DNA of 64,000 bases, taken from Candidatus Bathyarchaeota archaeon. Lineage in GTDB: Archaea; Thermoproteota; Bathyarchaeia; Bathyarchaeales; Bathycorpusculaceae. The position numbers were made by a program, and so were the translations under genes. The first letter of the stretch is position 1; every line of letters begins with the position of its first letter. The notes under the pieces are model-generated. The model saw nothing but the letters and a program-made list of their open reading frames with translations, was not told the DNA's origin and made no database searches. Shown piece by piece: positions 630-34,516 of the stretch. The DNA lies in the NCBI GenBank assembly GCA_026014595.1, contig JAOZHY010000002.1, positions 1 to 64,000 of the forward strand, given 5' to 3'.

Positions 630-663
630 GAGCTGGGGATGGGAATTGAACCCATATAGAGCA
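630..663. repeat. attL: left 34-bp attachment repeat (tRNA-Cys 3' half)
   Basis: Matches 5486-5519 at 33 of 34 positions; the difference is at 655. On the minus strand it is the variable region, T-arm and 3' acceptor strand of tRNA-Cys. The flanking chromosome at 628-630 completes CCA, marking this as the original chromosomal 3' end displaced by integration. Confidence 0.88.
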
Positions 664-697
664 TCTTATCCTTATCTTCATTGTTTACGTTACTCAT
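630..697 (-). pseudogene. int(N): detached 5' end of the integrase gene
   Basis: On the minus strand an ATG at 697-695 opens a frame reading MSNVNNEDKDK, then runs into the attachment repeat in the same frame that the integrase uses at the right end (LY-x-GSIPIPS). Joining this piece through the 34-bp core to 5486 gives a continuous integrase of 321 codons. The upstream frame closes at a TGA, and no other start codon lies between. This is the SSV-type arrangement, where attP lies inside the integrase gene and integration separates the promoter and first codons from the rest. Confidence 0.8.
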
Positions 698-807: not shown

Positions 808-1068
808 ATGGATGAGGATGAATATACAATTGAGGCAGTTACTTCTCCTTTACCAATTGTTAAACGTTCGAGTGCTGTATATTCAAAGATTATTAACGAT
901 GTGAGTAAGAGACCATCTGGAATCTATAAGATTACTGTTCCATCTAAGAAGACATCTACTCTCTATCAAGCATTAGCTAAATTGGTTCGTAGCCGTACTG
1001 ACGTTAAATTACACAAAGTTTCTGGAATTGTGTATTTAGAAAAAATAGATAAACCATTTAAGAAATAA
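808..1068 (+). CDS. Small basic element protein, 86 aa, unknown
   Basis: Not recognised. Start chosen at ATG 808, 4 nt after a good ribosome site (GAGGTGAT, 796-803); a GTG at 799 overlaps that site. The product has an acidic N-terminus (MDEDEY), then a Lys/Arg-rich alternating beta-like body and a basic tail (KPFKK), with no Cys. A TATA-like TTTATACTT lies at 766-774. It is the first plus-strand gene of the element and is followed by a T-rich stretch that may end its transcript. A DNA-binding role is possible from charge alone, but this is a guess. Confidence 0.65.
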   Translation: MDEDEYTIEAVTSPLPIVKRSSAVYSKIINDVSKRPSGIYKITVPSKKTSTLYQALAKLVRSRTDVKLHKVSGIVYLEKIDKPFKK

Positions 1069-1213: not shown

Positions 1214-1345
1214 ATGCTGTGTAAAGAATGTCGTTCAATGATGGTCTTTCGTACTGTACAGAATTACAAAGTAGAATTAACCGTATTCGGTAAACCGATA
1301 CAGTACGACGTTACTCCAGTTGATAAGGGAGCATTGTTATGTTAG
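1214..1345 (+). CDS. Micro-protein with single CxxC knuckle, 43 aa
   Basis: ATG at 1214 has a GGGGT ribosome site 7 nt upstream. The product begins M-L-C-K-E-C, a single CxxC pair, then a beta-like stretch (YKVELTVFGKP), and ends L-L-C. A lone CxxC could bind metal only as a dimer or together with the terminal Cys. It overlaps the next small frame by 7 nt (stop 1343-1345, next ATG 1339), which suggests coupled translation. Function unknown. It is the first member of the Cys-rich operon. Confidence 0.5.
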   Translation: MLCKECRSMMVFRTVQNYKVELTVFGKPIQYDVTPVDKGALLC

Positions 1346-1428
1346 AAATTATGTATATACGGTTACTTTATCTCCCTTGTACTGTTACTGTGCTGTTAGT
1401 GTATTTTATAAATGTGTTGTTGGTGTAG
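1339..1428 (+). CDS. Possible single-pass membrane micropeptide, 29 aa
   Basis: An ATG overlapping the previous stop opens a 29-residue frame that is almost wholly hydrophobic (about 20 of Leu, Val, Ile, Tyr, Phe, Thr), enough for one transmembrane helix. It ends 14 nt before the next gene. No separate ribosome site is visible, so it would rely on coupling to the upstream gene. It may be chance, but its place inside a tightly packed operon favours a real gene. Confidence 0.35.
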   Translation: MLEIMYIRLLYLPCTVTVLLVYFINVLLV

Positions 1429-1442
1429 CGGAGGCTATGTGA

Positions 1443-1733
1443 ATGGAAATAGTGACTATACGTAAGGAAGGGGTGTTGTGCAGTGTGTGTCTTGAGCCTA
1501 TTAATGTGGATGGTGAAGCATTCAAATTCTTTAATAGGAATGTGCCTTATGATGTTCCGTTAAGAGCTGGTCATATAAGAATCGGTAATAACTGTAGAAT
1601 ACATTTCAGACATCTTGATTGTCAATATAAGTTGAAGCCTCATAAAGACAGTTTTGAAGACTATATTAAGAACATTAAGTTTCAGATAGAGATGACGAAG
1701 AACAAGAAGAAGTTTAAGGAAGGTAAGTTATGA
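1443..1733 (+). CDS. RING-H2-like zinc-binding protein, 96 aa
   Basis: ATG 1443 follows a GGAGG ribosome site (about 1431-1435). Candidate metal ligands are C13 and C16 (C-x2-C), then C51-x2-H54-x2-H57-x2-C60. These match the spacing of the first six ligands of a RING-H2 finger. The final C-x2-C pair of a full RING is missing; the C-terminus is a Lys-rich helix. It could therefore be a divergent RING-like or other treble-clef fold. The stop overlaps the next ATG (ATGA at 1730-1733). No function can be assigned; a DNA-binding or regulatory role is only a guess from the fold class and context. Confidence 0.65.
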   Translation: MEIVTIRKEGVLCSVCLEPINVDGEAFKFFNRNVPYDVPLRAGHIRIGNNCRIHFRHLDCQYKLKPHKDSFEDYIKNIKFQIEMTKNKKKFKEGKL

Positions 1734-1903
1734 GAACGAGTAACGATAGTGTTTTAGTTTATGGAGTATGTACCAGAGGTAAATGTAATTATTGCGGTAA
1801 GACCAGTGATGAAGTGTATGTAGAAACTCCTAATAGACGTGTCTGTATGGAATGCATAAGAAAAGGCGTAATAGAGTATCATGAGAGAAGGTGTAGTAAA
1901 TGA
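1730..1903 (+). CDS. Zinc-ribbon micro-protein, 57 aa
   Basis: ATG at 1730 overlaps the previous stop by 4 nt and its own stop overlaps the next start by 4 nt (ATGA at 1900-1903), so three genes in a row are translationally coupled. Cys residues occur as C14, C19-x2-C22 and C39-x2-C42, with C55 near the end. C19/C22 with C39/C42 form a standard two-knuckle zinc ribbon. The rest is basic. Function unknown. Confidence 0.6.
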   Translation: MRTSNDSVLVYGVCTRGKCNYCGKTSDEVYVETPNRRVCMECIRKGVIEYHERRCSK

Positions 1904-2280
1904 ACTGGAAGAACATAAAACACATTAAGAAAAGCAAGACTGAACACATATGTTTGGTATGTAAAAAGAATATTCCAGTAGGCTCATCATACATTTATAA
2001 GCCGTATATACCAGACAACATAACAGATGTTTTATTGGAATTGGGATTTAATAGCACATGGTACGATGACAAATACGGTTACGGAATACAATACGTTGGC
2101 ATACCATTATGCAGTGAGTCGTGTTTACATGAAGCTAAACTGTTAAGTAGAGAGTATCCGAGAAGATGGAAGGAAATGTTACAACCACTTATAAACAGTA
2201 AGTATGAATCTTTAAAAAGGATTAGTGTTGAGAGAGGAATATGGAATGAAGGAAGAAAGACGATGTCTATACTGCGGTAG
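1900..2280 (+). CDS. Zinc-finger protein, 126 aa, unknown
   Basis: Starts in the ATGA overlap with the previous gene. Near the N-terminus is C-L-V-C (C-x2-C) in a Lys-rich setting, and about 50 residues later C-S-E-S-C (C-x3-C). Together they could coordinate one zinc ion. A Tyr/Gly-rich loop lies between them. The C-terminal third is a charged helix. It overlaps the next micro-gene (start 2246) in another frame. No family recognised. Confidence 0.6.
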   Translation: MNWKNIKHIKKSKTEHICLVCKKNIPVGSSYIYKPYIPDNITDVLLELGFNSTWYDDKYGYGIQYVGIPLCSESCLHEAKLLSREYPRRWKEMLQPLINSKYESLKRISVERGIWNEGRKTMSILR

Positions 2281-2395
2281 AAAGTTTACAGTTAACAATA
2301 TGAGCAAACGTAAACTATACTGTGACCGTGTTTGTGGAGATAGATACAGGGATAGACTACGTGATTTAAAGCAAATAGCAAAGGCTGTAGCATGA
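2246..2395 (+). CDS. Zinc-ribbon micro-protein of C-x2-C...C-x3-C type, 49 aa
   Basis: ATG 2246 begins inside the 3' end of the previous gene. The protein holds RCLYCGRKF, then Y-C-D-R-V-C, giving C-x2-C-x14-C-x3-C, followed by a basic Arg-rich helix (RYRDRLRDL). This pattern is common in small phage and plasmid zinc proteins that bind DNA. A 35-bp overlap with the preceding gene is unusual but both frames are well formed. A decayed copy of this gene appears near 4341-4425. Confidence 0.6.
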   Translation: MKEERRCLYCGRKFTVNNMSKRKLYCDRVCGDRYRDRLRDLKQIAKAVA

Positions 2396-2416
2396 TGGTG
2401 ATGGAGGTGAAAACGT

Positions 2417-3352
2417 ATGACTGAAGTAAAGCGTATAGAAGATGATTTTAAACAACGTATTGGAAGGGACATTACTAAAGAGGATTATAAGAAGCTCTAT
2501 GAAACGTTTCCAAACATTGGTGATACTGGAATAACCCAATACGAATATGAAGAGTTTATGCGTAGAGAATACCAGAAAGAGATTGAGGCTAAACTATCAG
2601 AGGCTAAAATACAACGTGAGTATGAACTAGCTGAAAAGGCTAAGTTAGCTAAATTGAAGATTGAGGAAGAACAGTTAGCAATACAAGCTGAGAATAGACA
2701 ACGGGAGATGTATAAAAAAATGGAATTACATGGAGCACCTAAAGAATTCATTGATATGCTTAATGACGCAGAGAAAATACAAAGCAGAATCAATAACTAT
2801 AGGCGTTATGGAACAACTGATGACCTTAAGAAGATTAAGGAATTAGAAGGGAAGATAGCAGAGCTTAAGAGTGAAATGTTAAAGTTGCCGTTTAAAGGAT
2901 ATAGCATGGAATTCAAGCCTGTAACTACGTACATGAGTGTAGCCAATCCTGAACATATGTTATTGAAAGATGATAAAGGAAATTGGTATCTAAAAGGGTA
3001 CGATAAATATTATAAGGTCATAGAAGAGAATGGAAAATTGAAAGCAGTAAACAAACTTACGTTAGAGACGGTGTTTAATACTCCAGAGGTAGTTAATGAG
3101 GAACATGACATAATTTTATTGACTGAAGAAGAATTAAAAGCTAAAGAAGAGCAAGAGAGACAGGAGAAACTTAGACGTATAGAGCAGAAGAAGAAAGAGC
3201 AAGAAGCAAAAGCTACTTGGGTATGTGACGTATGCAAGACTGAAAATAAGATGGATGCTACTGTATGTGTTAGATGCAATATACCCAGAAAAGATGTACC
3301 ACAAGGACAGAAGCAACAGCATGACTCATTGATTAAGAAACTGTTTAAATAA
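2417..3352 (+). CDS. Coiled-coil protein with C-terminal RanBP2-type zinc finger, 311 aa
   Basis: The largest element gene apart from the integrase. ATG 2417 has a strong ribosome site (GGAGGTGA, 2403-2410). Residues 30-110 form a long charged coiled coil, rich in Glu, Lys and Ala. The middle (about 160-235) is globular. A second charged helix (KAKEEQERQEKLRRIEQKK) leads to a RanBP2-type finger: W-x-C-x2-C-x3-N-x6-C-x2-C, reading WVCDVC...N...CVRC. In eukaryotes this finger binds ubiquitin or single-stranded RNA; here nucleic-acid binding is the simpler inference. It may be a structural or scaffold protein. No replication or packaging motif is seen. Confidence 0.75.
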   Translation: MTEVKRIEDDFKQRIGRDITKEDYKKLYETFPNIGDTGITQYEYEEFMRREYQKEIEAKLSEAKIQREYELAEKAKLAKLKIEEEQLAIQAENRQREMYKKMELHGAPKEFIDMLNDAEKIQSRINNYRRYGTTDDLKKIKELEGKIAELKSEMLKLPFKGYSMEFKPVTTYMSVANPEHMLLKDDKGNWYLKGYDKYYKVIEENGKLKAVNKLTLETVFNTPEVVNEEHDIILLTEEELKAKEEQERQEKLRRIEQKKKEQEAKATWVCDVCKTENKMDATVCVRCNIPRKDVPQGQKQQHDSLIKKLFK

Positions 3353-3358
3353 TAAGAG

Positions 3359-3724
3359 ATGGTAAAAACGAGACAGTGTTTAATATGTAAAAGGTTTCTA
3401 CCTAAAGGTGGAAAGAAATACTGTAAAGACCATAACAGAAATAACCCTTTAAGACGTTACGCATTTGGAAAGACAGTATCAGCTTTTGAACCTCATAAAT
3501 TCTTTAGAAAGATTAATCATTATAAACGTAGAGGAAGAAAAAGAATACCTAAATCTAAACGGTATATTGAGGTTAAAGTAGCAAATATGCATCGTGCTTT
3601 AATTATGAGACATAAGCATAGACCAGAAACAGAGTATAGACCAGAGAATAGACCTTACAGTAAATACAAAGATATGTTGCAGAAGAAGTATCCACATGCA
3701 GAGATTGTTTACATATTTCCATAA
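3359..3724 (+). CDS. Basic zinc-knuckle protein, 121 aa
   Basis: Starts at ATG 3359, 6 nt after the previous stop, with AAGAG as a weak ribosome site. The N-terminus carries CLICKRFLPKGGKKYCKDH, that is C-x2-C-x10-C-x2-H, a compact zinc knuckle. The rest is very basic (RRGRKRIPKSKRY and RHKHRPETEY) and ends in a short hydrophobic strand. The charge suggests nucleic-acid binding. It is the last gene of the operon. No family recognised. Confidence 0.65.
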   Translation: MVKTRQCLICKRFLPKGGKKYCKDHNRNNPLRRYAFGKTVSAFEPHKFFRKINHYKRRGRKRIPKSKRYIEVKVANMHRALIMRHKHRPETEYRPENRPYSKYKDMLQKKYPHAEIVYIFP

Positions 3725-3801
3725 TGATAACTTATATTTAAATATCGTTTCGTTATACCATAAGAAAGATAACGCTACGCTACGTTCCCCTCTGTCACTA
3801 C

Positions 3802-3817
3802 GCTACGCTAGAATAAT
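3802..3817 (+). repeat. Inverted repeat, left arm (16 bp)
   Basis: GCTACGCTAGAATAAT here is the exact reverse complement of 4572-4587. The arm overlaps a tandem GCTACGCTA motif that also occurs about 30 bp upstream. Confidence 0.8.
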
Positions 3818-3937
3818 AACAGGAATAATAGTGTGGAATTAACTAAGTTTTCCATATAAAGAAAGATAAGACGTAAAGACCATTAACAACATTGTCCTAA
3901 TTAGGTCAAGTAGTAATCTTTAACAAAAATTAAGTTT

Positions 3938-3975
3938 CCTAGAGTCCTAGAGTATGGTCCTAGAGTCCCTAGAGG
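3938..3975 (+). repeat. CCTAGAG iteron cluster, four copies
   Basis: CCTAGAGT at 3938-3945, 3946-3953 and 3959-3966, and CTAGAGG at the end of 3968-3975. Short tandem iterons of this kind often bind a replication or partition protein; which protein is unknown here. Confidence 0.6.
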
Positions 3976-4340
3976 AATCCATGATGATGATGTAATGGTG
4001 ACCAGAGTAATAGTACGGGTCATTATTTCACACATCCATTATCACAGATTACATGTACAGACTAAGTGTATGCTATATGGTTAATATGTTCTTCTCATAA
4101 ACACTTTATTCATTGAAAAAATGCTAAGTTTCCTTAATCACTTTCACGAAATAACAACAGTAGCTAACAATGGACATTTTCGTCAGTCTTTATATGAGGC
4201 GTTGATATTCCACGTATTGAAGCAGTAAAAGACATTCTAATCTCTAAGCTAATAGGTTATTTCAGTAAAAGAGGAATAATCCATTGAGAACATTCTGTTG
4301 AATAGAGCAATAAAACTTAGAGAAAATTAACAACTTGTAA

Positions 4341-4425
4341 ACGTGAACAATGTTATGATTAAAAGAAACTGTACTGTGACCGTACTCTGGAATAGACTGA
4401 ATAGAGAGCTTCTTTAAGCAATTGT
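4341..4425 (+). pseudogene. Decayed copy of the 2246 zinc-ribbon gene
   Basis: The 18 nt at 4366-4383 match 2312-2329 at 17 positions, and flanking bases (AACAAT before, AATAGACT and TTAAGCAA after) align loosely with the same gene. The frame is broken, so this reads as the relic of a second gene copy. Confidence 0.4.
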
Positions 4426-4571
4426 GAAATATTTAACAAAGATTCCACGTGTACACAGCATCTACAGTTCAGCAATACTGGCTCAGTAAAAGAATTCTTA
4501 AAATATCCAGAATCAATGCTTAAAACGACATGGCTTAACAGGGTACTTTATAAAAAAAATAATAAAAAATA

Positions 4572-4587
4572 ATTATTCTAGCGTAGC
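4572..4587 (-). repeat. Inverted repeat, right arm (16 bp)
   Basis: Exact reverse complement of 3802-3817. It ends immediately before the stop codon of the integrase, so the pair frames the whole non-coding block. Confidence 0.8.
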
Positions 4588-5553
4588 TTACTTTCTCTTT
4601 CTAAATAGTTTGTATCCTTCCATGTCACAGACGTATTCATACCCAGATTCAATAAGAGCAGATGCTTCAGTAACAGTCTTAGCAATCTTACAGACGTACT
4701 CATCATTCTTAAACTCTACCAGATGCGTATAGACCAAAGTATTCTTAATGTTCCTATGTCCTAACAGGTTCATAACGTACAGAATGTCCTTACTCTTAGC
4801 ATACTCCATTGTAGCTTTATAGTGACGTAAAGATTTCCATGTGATAGATGCGATCATAGGGTTACAGAGTGCATGGGAGACATTCTTCTTTTCTCTTATG
4901 AACCAGTTACGTAAAGACTCTATTCTAACATTAACGTTACTTTTGAATACATAGTCAGATGTACGTGGTAATGTACTCAGTAAACCAATCAGTTGATTAG
5001 AAACTTTAAGTCTTCTTGCATTACTTCCCTTCTCTGGATTATTGACAGTAACATAACAATTCTGGAAGTCTATATCTATCCACTTAAGATTGAATACTTC
5101 TCCAGATCTAGCTCCAGTTTCATATATTGCCCTTGTGAATATTCTAAGTTTCCTTGGTAAAGCAGACAGTAACGATTCAATGTCTTTCTCCAATGGTATA
5201 AACGGTAACTTATCTGTTCTCTTATACCTCGGTTTTATCAATGGAATCTTAGCGTAATTACAGTAGTTAGCATAGACATCTATCATTACCTCTTTTCTAC
5301 CATCACTTACATGGAGATTAGCAATGTAGCCCAGTACACTCTCAGAATCTTTAATGTTACAGTGCTTCATTAACTGTTTAAGAATCTTAGCGTAATTCTG
5401 GACAATGGTAGTTTCTTTATACCCTCTTTTCTTCAGTGACCACAGAAACTCTGTTATTCCACTGGAGTATAGGGATTCAGTATTAGAGCTGGGGATGGGA
5501 ATTGAACCCACATAGAGCAGCTCTGCAGGCTGCCGCCTGAACCGTTCGGCCAC
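4588..5553 (-). CDS. int(C): SSV-type tyrosine recombinase, main part
   Basis: Catalyses integration and excision at tRNA-Cys. The catalytic part is complete: the first Arg in TGARSGEVFNL, the box II segment SLRHYKATMEY, then LLGHRNIKNTLVYTHL with the Tyr nucleophile. Residues about 12-23 (LLYVGSIPIPSS) are the translation of the tRNA 3' half, so attP lies inside the gene. The listed GTG start at 5553 sits in the tRNA gene and was created by integration; the native start is the ATG at 697-695 at the other end. The gene now has no promoter of its own beyond the tRNA gene, which is read in the same direction, so read-through could still express it. Confidence 0.88.
   Translation of the reverse strand: MAERFRRQPAELLYVGSIPIPSSNTESLYSSGITEFLWSLKKRGYKETTIVQNYAKILKQLMKHCNIKDSESVLGYIANLHVSDGRKEVMIDVYANYCNYAKIPLIKPRYKRTDKLPFIPLEKDIESLLSALPRKLRIFTRAIYETGARSGEVFNLKWIDIDFQNCYVTVNNPEKGSNARRLKVSNQLIGLLSTLPRTSDYVFKSNVNVRIESLRNWFIREKKNVSHALCNPMIASITWKSLRHYKATMEYAKSKDILYVMNLLGHRNIKNTLVYTHLVEFKNDEYVCKIAKTVTEASALIESGYEYVCDMEGYKLFRKRK
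5486..5519. repeat. attR: right 34-bp attachment repeat
   Basis: Forms the 3' half of the restored tRNA-Cys and also codes residues of the integrase. After the discriminator base it reads C-T-A instead of CCA, showing that the 3' end was supplied by the element. Confidence 0.88.
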
Positions 5554-5559
5554 CCCAGC
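5487..5559 (-). tRNA. tRNA-Cys (GCA)
   Basis: 73 nt with a full cloverleaf: 7-bp acceptor GCTGGGG/CCCCAGC, anticodon stem GCAGC/GCTGC with loop CTGCAGA giving GCA, T-arm loop TTCAATT, and discriminator U as expected for Cys. The T-stem base pair 49-65 is G-U here but A-U in the displaced copy at 630-663. CCA is not encoded. AT-rich TATA-like sequence lies near 5585-5595 on the minus strand. Confidence 0.93.
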
Positions 5560-33059: not shown

Positions 33060-33335
33060 TTATTTATCCTGCTCCCACGCCTCTATTAGGTTTTGCACTG
33101 CCCGCGCCTTGGCTGAGGCTTCATTGAACTTGTACATGCGGATTCGCCCGTAAACCCGTTGCTGCAAAATGCCTTCACTTTCCAACAGCTTCAGGTGCTG
33201 ATTAGTTGTCGAATAGTTCAAGCCTATCCGCCGCGCTATCTCAGAAACGTTAACTGCTCCCAACCGCGACAGCAGCTTCAGAATTTTCATCCTAGGCTTG
33301 GAAGAAAAAACCTCTTCAACATCCATAAACTTCAC
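33060..33335 (-). CDS. ArsR-type winged-helix regulator, 91 aa
   Basis: Small wHTH: VSEIARRIGLNYSTTNQHLKLLESEGILQQRVYGRIRMYKF contains the recognition helix and wing. No metal-binding Cys. It overlaps the Cdc6-like gene upstream by 4 nt, so the two are coupled, and lies just ahead of moaC. It may regulate its own operon or act with the Cdc6-like protein; unproven. Confidence 0.82.
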   Translation of the reverse strand: MKFMDVEEVFSSKPRMKILKLLSRLGAVNVSEIARRIGLNYSTTNQHLKLLESEGILQQRVYGRIRMYKFNEASAKARAVQNLIEAWEQDK

Positions 33336-34516
33336 GCCCTCTCTTTTTCCAGCAACGCACTTAATTCTTTCTCCAACTCCACGGCGGGAACCGCGGGCAA
33401 AGAAATCCGCGTTGACCTGCCATGCGCGCCAGTTGAGGCGACCGCGGTTTTCAGTATGCCCAGCGCTGAGAGAAGTTGGACGTACTTCCAGAGCTGCACG
33501 TGGCTTTTGGGCGTCTCATCATATTCTTCGCAGACCACCGCGTAAGCCCCCTCAACCTCAGACAAGGACGCGTAAGCTTTCTGGCTTTCCTTGAAAGTCC
33601 GCGCCGCACCAAGCAGAAACAGTTTTTCATGCCGCCCAAGCGCGGTCAATTCACTTCTTCGCAGCGTCGGAAGTATGCTGGAAACTGCTTTCCGCACGCA
33701 TTCAGGCTCCACTTGTCCCGCGTCTTCGGCGTCAGCGTATTTCCCTGCCCGCCACAAGAGTTCGATGGCGAAGCGGGCGTTTCCGCTCTCCGAGACAGCC
33801 AGCTCAGCTACAAGGTCCACGACGTCTTCGGGAACCGTTGAGGGCTCAAACGCCATGGCAACTCGGTCGTTCAAGATGTCTACAAGCTGGTCTTTCGGGT
33901 ACCGTTCTAAGCGGATTACATTGCATTGCAGCGTGCTCCGTGCGCTCGCGTCTAACCGCTCCGTGGATTTCAGGTCCCGCATGACACTTATCAGCGATAA
34001 CCGTTGGGGTCTGCCCGTCCGCATCTCCTGCAGCCGAGTCAGCGTGTAAACGGCTTCGGAGCCTTCTTTCTCGATGAGCGTGTCGAACTCGTCCAGCGTG
34101 AGAATCACGAACGCGTTATCCTCATCCAGCGCTTGCATGAGCGTCCTGAGAACCTCTTCTGTGGAGTAGCCGCGGCTTGGGAAGGTGGGACGGAAAACCG
34201 TCAGCGCGTGCTGCAGGATGAGGAATAGTTTGCCGCGGTATTCTCGGCAGTTAACATGGATGTAACGCAGGTTTACGCCCTGCTTGTTTGCCTCAGAGGT
34301 TATGTCTGCGCCGAAGCGCTGGGCTAGGACTGTTTTTCCCGTGCCAACCTCGCCCGTTATTATGACCCGCTGAGCCATGCGTTCGGGGAATCGCAGCAGA
34401 AAGTTGAAGAACTCCATTAGTAAGCGGTGTTCCTCTTCTCTGTGAGGCAAGCGGCGGGGAACATAGTTTATGTCGAGTTTTGACTCGTCTTTGAACACGC
34501 TTCGACGGGGCGCCAC
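33332..34516 (-). CDS. Orc1/Cdc6-family replication initiator, 394 aa
   Basis: AAA+ ATPase that binds origins. N-terminal RREEEHR-like segment (RRLPHREEEHRLL), Walker A TGEVGTGKT, Walker B ILTLDEFD, sensor 1 region LISVMRDL and a C-terminal winged helix (SHVQLWKYVQLLSALGIL). Usual Cdc6 length. The 126-bp gap upstream has repeats like origin recognition boxes. A second copy elsewhere in the genome would be common. Confidence 0.9.
   Translation of the reverse strand: MAPRRSVFKDESKLDINYVPRRLPHREEEHRLLMEFFNFLLRFPERMAQRVIITGEVGTGKTVLAQRFGADITSEANKQGVNLRYIHVNCREYRGKLFLILQHALTVFRPTFPSRGYSTEEVLRTLMQALDEDNAFVILTLDEFDTLIEKEGSEAVYTLTRLQEMRTGRPQRLSLISVMRDLKSTERLDASARSTLQCNVIRLERYPKDQLVDILNDRVAMAFEPSTVPEDVVDLVAELAVSESGNARFAIELLWRAGKYADAEDAGQVEPECVRKAVSSILPTLRRSELTALGRHEKLFLLGAARTFKESQKAYASLSEVEGAYAVVCEEYDETPKSHVQLWKYVQLLSALGILKTAVASTGAHGRSTRISLPAVPAVELEKELSALLEKERA

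What the first reader, a model, noticed from the sequence alone, without database searches (positions are those of the whole stretch)
1214..3724. Operon of up to eight small, mostly Cys-rich putative zinc proteins as the whole cargo of a mini-element
Of the eight frames between 1214 and 3724, all but the 29-codon membrane peptide carry CxxC-type motifs: a lone CxxC, a RING-H2-like set, three zinc ribbons or fingers, a RanBP2 finger on a coiled-coil protein and a basic zinc knuckle. Several overlap by ATGA or share ribosome sites. No replication, capsid or partition gene is recognisable. Such a dense set of metal-binding proteins with no known hallmark may be a new kind of archaeal virus, satellite or plasmid.
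Basis: partly seen in the sequence, partly recalled or inferred. Interest (0 to 1): 0.72.

Follow-up and report, generated by a model that had tools for sequence, protein, structure and literature searches.

The report
Zinc-protein mini-element with chromosome-terminus site
A 4.9-kilobase mobile DNA circle inserted in a tRNA gene of a sediment archaeon carries a row of tiny, unfamiliar, mostly zinc-finger-like proteins plus a copy of a DNA site that its host family otherwise keeps once per chromosome, apparently where replication ends.

Summary
Seven of the eight frames at 1214-3724 carry CxxC, most use element-like codons (TM29 does not), and the density exceeds chance: 5 CxxC frames against at most 4 in 400 random windows. 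Only the RanBP2-type finger has family-level support. The element is 4,856 bp, bounded by a 37-nt repeat of the tRNA-Cys 3' end; its attachment site lies inside the 5' end of its integrase gene, an SSV-like arrangement. The host is a Bathyarchaeia archaeon. No cargo homologue was found in the collections searched.

New: the 'empty' gap 3725-4587 holds a site (4168-4216) whose 26-nt core is 25/26 identical to a motif found once per chromosome in the host's family beside hjc/lonB. In a single-contig relative this motif sits opposite the main cdc6 gene and near a compositional breakpoint, so it probably marks the replication terminus. A tailed-virus contig carries the same core. Best reading: a minimal integrative plasmid or satellite that borrows a host chromosome-terminus site, perhaps to resolve multimers as cer/psi sites do, while its zinc proteins bind nucleic acid or host proteins. 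Both functions are inferred.

The parts
630..666 (.). attL: displaced copy of the tRNA-Cys 3' end
   Evidence: 37-nt direct repeat with 5486-5522, 95% identical, spacing 4856
630..697 (-). int(N): short 5' part of the integrase gene left at attL (start codon probably 697)
   Evidence: joining the ends across att gives one open frame into int(C)
808..1068 (+). orf86, 86 aa, Cys-free; single-sequence AlphaFold model mean pLDDT 73, no confident fold match
1214..1345 (+). A43, 43 aa, one CxxC
1339..1428 (+). TM29, 29-aa hydrophobic peptide; coding not supported by codon use
1443..1733 (+). B96, 96 aa, CxxC plus CxHxxHxxC
1730..1903 (+). C57, 57 aa, zinc-ribbon-like, two CxxC
1900..2280 (+). D126, 126 aa, CxxC...CxxxC
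2246..2395 (+). E49, 49 aa, CxxC...CxxxC, overlaps D126; weak matches to HNH-type phage zinc parts
2417..3352 (+). F311, 311 aa, long helical (coiled-coil-like) protein with a C-terminal RanBP2/NZF finger (about 3215-3292)
3359..3724 (+). G121, 121 aa, very basic (35 K/R, 8 D/E), CxxC...CxxH
3937..3974 (+). about five short copies of TCCTAGAG in the non-coding gap
   Evidence: Tandem Repeats Finder
4168..4216 (+). terminus-type site (motif A); core ATTTTCGNNNGTNNTTATATGAGGC starts at 4176
   Evidence: 39.8 bits with a matrix from 24 chromosomal copies; next best in the 64-kb window -3.6; best of 20 shuffles 1.2; core 25/26 to L092; exact pattern match
4588..5522 (-). int(C): tyrosine recombinase, frame runs on through the tRNA gene
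   Evidence: Pfam PF00589 1.4e-16, PHROG_1 6.3e-32, NCBIfam XerA-type 5.6e-24 below cut-off
5486..5522 (.). attR, inside the intact tRNA-Cys gene
5486..5559 (-). tRNA-Cys (GCA), integration target

Best explanation
A minimal integrative plasmid or satellite of a Bathyarchaeia archaeon. Shown: it inserted at the 3' end of tRNA-Cys; it encodes a tyrosine integrase whose attachment site lies in the 5' end of the int gene, so integration cuts off the first few dozen codons. Shown: its non-coding gap carries the core of a site that chromosomes of the host's family hold once. Supported: on the chromosome that site marks the replication terminus region. Inferred: in the circular form the site is acted on by the host's terminus machinery, most likely to keep the circle monomeric (as cer and psi do for bacterial plasmids through dif/Xer), so the element needs few maintenance genes of its own. 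Inferred: copying of the circle relies on host proteins or on an unrecognised element protein. Inferred: the run of small CxxC proteins are zinc-stabilised nucleic-acid- or protein-binding regulators of element and host genes, with F311 as a scaffold whose RanBP2-type finger is its binding end and the basic G121 as a nucleic-acid binder.
For: att repeat and tRNA; int frame restored across the joined ends; CxxC density; RanBP2 finger. Site: exact in the element and once on the own chromosome at C17, reversed-pattern control zero; 39.8 bits against -3.6 for the next site in 64 kb; 51 matches in 47 of 256 class genomes, all 47 in the window's own family of 90, reversed control 8 matches. Terminus: in single-contig G101 the site (906,368) and the best Cdc6 hit (2,271,149) are 0.499 of the 2,733,033-bp contig apart; transcription-corrected T-A skew at third codon positions in 60 samples has its best breakpoints at 0.86 and 2.24-2.30 Mb. 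Boxes B cluster around it in 14 of 14 genomes. A virus contig carries the same core, 25/26.
Against: Function of the site and of every cargo protein is untested. The canonical archaeal dif (11-bp inverted repeats, 6-bp spacer) is not met. No XerA-like match was seen in the own genome when searched with the element's integrase (genome 89% complete, query not XerA). The coding-strand breakpoints (0.36-0.40 and 2.48-2.50 Mb) do not fall on the site, circular shifts reach the T-A value in 4 of 58 cases, and sampled skews of G007 are noisy. Neither the element nor the virus carries box B. No cargo homologue was found, so selection on the frames is not shown.
Confidence: 0.45

Rival explanations
1. 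The conserved site is part of a replication origin, and the element copies itself by mimicking the host origin.
For: Long intergenic region with an inverted pair of 18-bp boxes B in 18 of 24 genomes and at least one in 23 of 24, resembling the ORB-DUE-ORB layout of Sulfolobus oriC1 with its central ucm (PMC12141716, passages). It would explain the missing replication gene.
Against: Cdc6 genes are not beside the site in any of 11 genomes searched; in G101 the site is opposite the best Cdc6 gene and coding strands tend to point towards rather than away from it; the element and the virus lack box B.
Confidence: 0.2
2. The site is a replication-fork barrier or a binding site of a terminus-organising protein (Tus/Ter- or MatP/matS-like) that the element uses to order its own replication or to be segregated.
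For: Terminus position, surrounding array of 18-bp boxes, ParA-type gene within 10 kb in 4 of 14 genomes.
Against: The repeated array element is box B, which the element does not carry; motif A is single-copy per chromosome, unlike matS (matS recalled).
Confidence: 0.2
3. A decayed provirus or plasmid remnant: an 860-bp gap of former genes, small frames surviving by chance.
For: The gap 3725-4587 is broken in all six frames and repeats 17 of 18 nt of the E49 gene at 4366-4383; no homologues of the small frames.
Against: Integrase frame, both att copies, codon use of most cargo frames and the conserved site are intact.
Confidence: 0.15
4. A satellite virus whose small proteins are virion or packaging factors supplied to a helper.
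For: Small size, one coiled-coil-like 311-aa protein, no replication gene; a tailed virus with related DNA in the same host family carries the same core site.
Against: No virion gene in Pfam, PHROGs or NCBIfam, no shared cargo protein with any locus then held.
Confidence: 0.15

Closest known systems
SSV-type (suicidal) integrative elements of archaea (SSV1, SSV2, pTN3, pT26-2)
   Same: Attachment site inside the int gene; insertion into the 3' end of a tRNA gene; int split on integration (definition from passages of PMC8371274).
   Different: Integrase matches PF00589, not PF16795 (Phage_integr_3), which the review gives for the suicidal families; only a short 5' part is cut off; cargo unrelated.
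dif/Xer sites and plasmid cer/psi sites
   Same: A chromosomal site, single per genome, at the apparent terminus, with core copies on a plasmid-like element and a virus.
   Different: No 11-6-11 inverted repeat, no recombinase identified, recombination not tested.
Bathyarchaeia viruses of PMC10848311 (abstract and passages read)
   Same: Same host class; one family encodes spindle-virus proteins and an integrase.
   Different: No structural or replication gene recognised here; no cargo match in viral contigs.
Small zinc-finger proteins of archaea and their viruses (PMC6562870 abstract and outline; PMC3541406 passages)
   Same: Single-finger proteins of similar size.
   Different: PMC3541406 says archaeal viruses typically show one or two zinc-finger sequences; here five to seven CxxC proteins are side by side.

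Membership tests
SSV-type (suicidal) integrative element | attP within the int gene, frame split on integration | tested here: met
   open frame restored across joined ends
SSV-type (suicidal) integrative element | insertion in a tRNA gene with a direct repeat of its 3' end | tested here: met
SSV-type (suicidal) integrative element | integrase with Phage_integr_3 (PF16795) | tested here: not met
   only PF00589 up to E 5
Fuselloviridae or other spindle-shaped virus | VP1/VP3-type hydrophobic capsid proteins or AAA+ ATPase | tested here: not met
   no Pfam, PHROG or NCBIfam match in the element
archaeal dif site | two 11-bp inverted repeats with a 6-bp spacer | tested here: not met
   best 5 of 11 pairs for spacers 4-10
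archaeal dif site | single copy in the replication-termination region | tested here: met
   one per genome apart from a few second matches; terminus position supported in one genome, G101, only roughly in G007
archaeal dif site | recombined by XerA or another Xer recombinase | not testable with these tools
   needs an in vitro assay; XerA presence not settled
replication origin (ORB type) | adjacent to cdc6/orc1 | tested here: not met
   no adjacency in 11 genomes
RanBP2/NZF zinc finger (F311) | sequence profile of the RanBP2-type finger | tested here: inconclusive
   E 2.6e-5 but 23.8 bits against a cut-off of 27; Nup153 1.5e-6
known anti-phage defence cargo | PADLOC model match | tested here: not met
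   only a 0.049 match

The most novel reading that the evidence does not exclude
Archaea of this Bathyarchaeia family end chromosome replication at a site unlike known dif, ringed by an array of 18-bp boxes, and both a 4.9-kb zinc-protein element and a tailed virus carry the core of that site to have their own circles resolved or segregated by the host: a new class of terminus site, revealed by its parasites, on a replicon with no other maintenance gene.
Probability: 0.3. Interest if true: 0.75.

Novelty: new variant of a known kind. Interest (0 to 1): 0.6.

Why it matters
How uncultured Bathyarchaeia finish replication and separate chromosomes is not described in the papers listed by the search made here. 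A single, testable 49-bp site with copies on mobile elements gives a handle on it. The cargo is also a compact set of zinc-finger-like proteins from an element that seems to persist with almost no standard plasmid genes.

Tried and rejected
CRISPR spacers: short matches of the element in relatives were checked in two loci (L105, L106); no spacer-repeat array was seen there; the others were not checked. Conserved site as a coding or RNA feature: flanking frames differ between genomes and Rfam finds nothing in 13 loci. Site as origin: first favoured, then demoted. Cargo homology: F311 in 100 relatives, 398 phylum genomes (one other hit, to the finger only), viral contigs and phages; G121 in 250 relatives and viral contigs; D126, orf86 and B96 in viral contigs; all cargo proteins against the loci then held; element DNA against 90 family genomes, only the three best candidates per genome scored. 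A43, C57 and E49 had no wider protein search. Fold search of orf86 gave nothing at E 0.001. The F311 model (pLDDT 64.5, pTM 0.31) was judged too weak to search. Metagenome contigs could not be scanned (cap of zero).
Full report
Setting. The window is contig C36 of genome G000 (2.06 Mb, 51 contigs, 89% complete). The nearest named relatives of its integrase are mostly Bathyarchaeota contigs, 4 of 5 loci. The element (GC 0.34) sits in host DNA of about 0.45-0.55 GC.

Anatomy. tRNA-Cys lies at 5486-5559 on the minus strand. Its 3' end is repeated at 630-666, 95% identical over 37 nt, 4,856 bp away. Joining the two element ends gives one open frame that starts left of the repeat and continues into the integrase at 5511-4588: attP lies in the 5' end of int, as in SSV-type elements (PMC8371274, passages). 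Unlike those families the protein matches PF00589 and not PF16795, and only a short 5' part is cut off, so int(C) keeps its conserved region; the matches of relatives begin mostly at residues 10-21. Related integrases are common: 54 of 60 genomes searched, the own one included, have at least one. The closest, 57% identical, in G077, has a different cargo, so integrase and cargo are separable modules.

Cargo. The plus-strand genes are orf86, A43, (TM29), B96, C57, D126, E49, F311 and G121. Seven of the eight frames named in the finding carry CxxC; codon use supports A43, B96, C57, D126, F311 and G121, is ambiguous for E49 and does not support TM29. Five CxxC frames in a length-ranked choice exceed all 400 random windows of equal length from two relatives. 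Of 11 other integrase neighbourhoods scored the same way, over differing and mostly longer stretches, one also has 5 (L066) and the rest 0-3. Only F311 has a recognised domain, a RanBP2-type finger at residues 267-292, behind long predicted helices (low confidence). G121 is strongly basic. No cargo protein matched Pfam, PHROGs, NCBIfam or PADLOC beyond weak hits, many of them around the Cys pairs, nor the viral, phage and genome collections searched (the one hit covers the finger only).

The non-coding gap. A DNA search of 90 family genomes returned, besides integrase genes and scattered short matches, a recurring match to window 4170-4211. Aligned loci show a conserved site (motif A), GCATGGAGATTTTCGnnnGTnnTTATATGAGGCCnCGnTATTCTCCATG, with outer arms forming a dyad. 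The own genome has one chromosomal copy (C17:154677) besides the element's, and none of the reversed control. In 256 class genomes there are 51 matches at up to 2 mismatches in 47 genomes, all in the window's family; 7 of the 47 have only a diverged match of another kind (judged by eye), and the control pattern matched 8 times. With a matrix from 24 chromosomal copies the element's site scores 39.8 bits; the next best in the 64-kb window is -3.6, the best of 20 shuffles 1.2, and none of the 24 other integrase loci scored exceeds -5.1. The core is 25 of 26 identical to the copy of G032 but 21 of 26 to that of its own chromosome, so it was probably not copied recently from there. One IMG/VR contig of 51 kb has the pattern, next to tail-type genes (read by eye), with a core 25 of 26 identical to a chromosomal copy, and its DNA matches stretches in G001 and G023 of the same family.

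What the site marks. On chromosomes it lies beside lonB in 7 of 8 loci read and near hjc in 5 of 8 (families confirmed for one of each). An 18-bp box (GTATACARAAGCATCAAC, box B) occurs as an inverted pair in the gap in 18 of 24 genomes and at least once in 23 of 24, and at two or more places within 10 kb of the site in 14 of 14 genomes. In 60 samples of G101 all six boxes at up to 2 mismatches lie in the sample with the site (five) or in one about 40-60 kb away (one). In single-contig G101 the site is 0.499 of the genome from the best Cdc6 hit. A T-A skew corrected for gene strand splits G101 best at 0.86 and 2.24-2.30 Mb (z 5.9), close to the site (0.906) and that Cdc6 gene (2.271); circular shifts reach the value in 4 of 58 cases. 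Genes run mostly in the plus direction from about 2.5 through 0 to 0.4 Mb and mostly minus elsewhere, which, if genes follow the forks, puts the origin towards cdc6 and the terminus towards motif A. Against this: coding-strand breakpoints are not exactly there, GC skew is weak, a second, weaker Cdc6 gene (1.183 Mb) is at no breakpoint, and G007 samples are noisy, though in G007 too the site and the best Cdc6 hit are about half a genome apart (0.78 of about 1.6 Mb).

Reading. A site present once per chromosome at the apparent terminus, of which mobile circles carry only the 26-nt core, fits a host-recombined resolution site such as dif with plasmid cer/psi (PMC5357621, passages) better than an origin, which should bring its initiator boxes along. 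But it lacks the 11-6-11 inverted repeat of archaeal dif (definition from passages of PMC5357621 and PMC2958812), and no recombinase is identified. It therefore works like, but is not shown to be, a dif site. Origin and fork-barrier readings stay open.

Novelty. None of the ten papers listed in a search for Bathyarchaeia with terminus, dif, Cdc6 or skew terms mentions Bathyarchaeia, and searches for archaeal plasmids or viruses with dif-like sites listed none whose abstract opening describes such a case. These cover open-licence papers only. The element is a new variant of a known kind; the terminus site and its spread on mobile DNA is the more surprising part.

Noticed in passing
L195-L206, L121, L139; G000 C17:144679-164678: Terminus-like chromosomal locus of the family: single motif A plus 18-bp boxes B at recurring spacings over several kb (14 of 14 genomes).
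   Followed up: partly
L121:15064-16268, also L197, L198, L202: ParA-type ATPase with a 141-aa partner gene within about 10 kb of motif A in 4 of 14 genomes, possibly a segregation pair.
   Followed up: partly
L154:3664-3712 (IMGVR_UViG_3300032069_000017): A 51-kb tailed-virus contig carries the motif A core in a non-coding gap.
   Followed up: partly
window 33332-34516 (-): A second cdc6/orc1-type gene of the host lies in this window; no box B in the 64-kb window.
   Followed up: no
window 4366-4383 and 2312-2329: 17 of 18 nt of the E49 gene are repeated in the non-coding gap, perhaps a decayed second zinc-finger gene.
   Followed up: no
window 3799-3817 and 4572-4590: 19-nt inverted repeat, 95% complementary, bounds the non-coding gap; perhaps the two terminators of convergent genes.
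   Followed up: no
G012, G037, G112, G116, G107, G117, G122: A recurring two-mismatch relative of motif A, TGGTAATTTTCGTGCGTTTTTGTTTGA and variants, in one genus; nature unknown.
   Followed up: no
L066, L067, L068: Integrase frames overlapping a tRNA gene in other Bathyarchaeia genomes, so the attP-in-int arrangement may recur outside the PF16795 family.
   Followed up: no
G009 C4:419259-421132 and C9:197034-198912; G004 C8:1235-2592: Tyrosine recombinase genes in convergent pairs.
   Followed up: no
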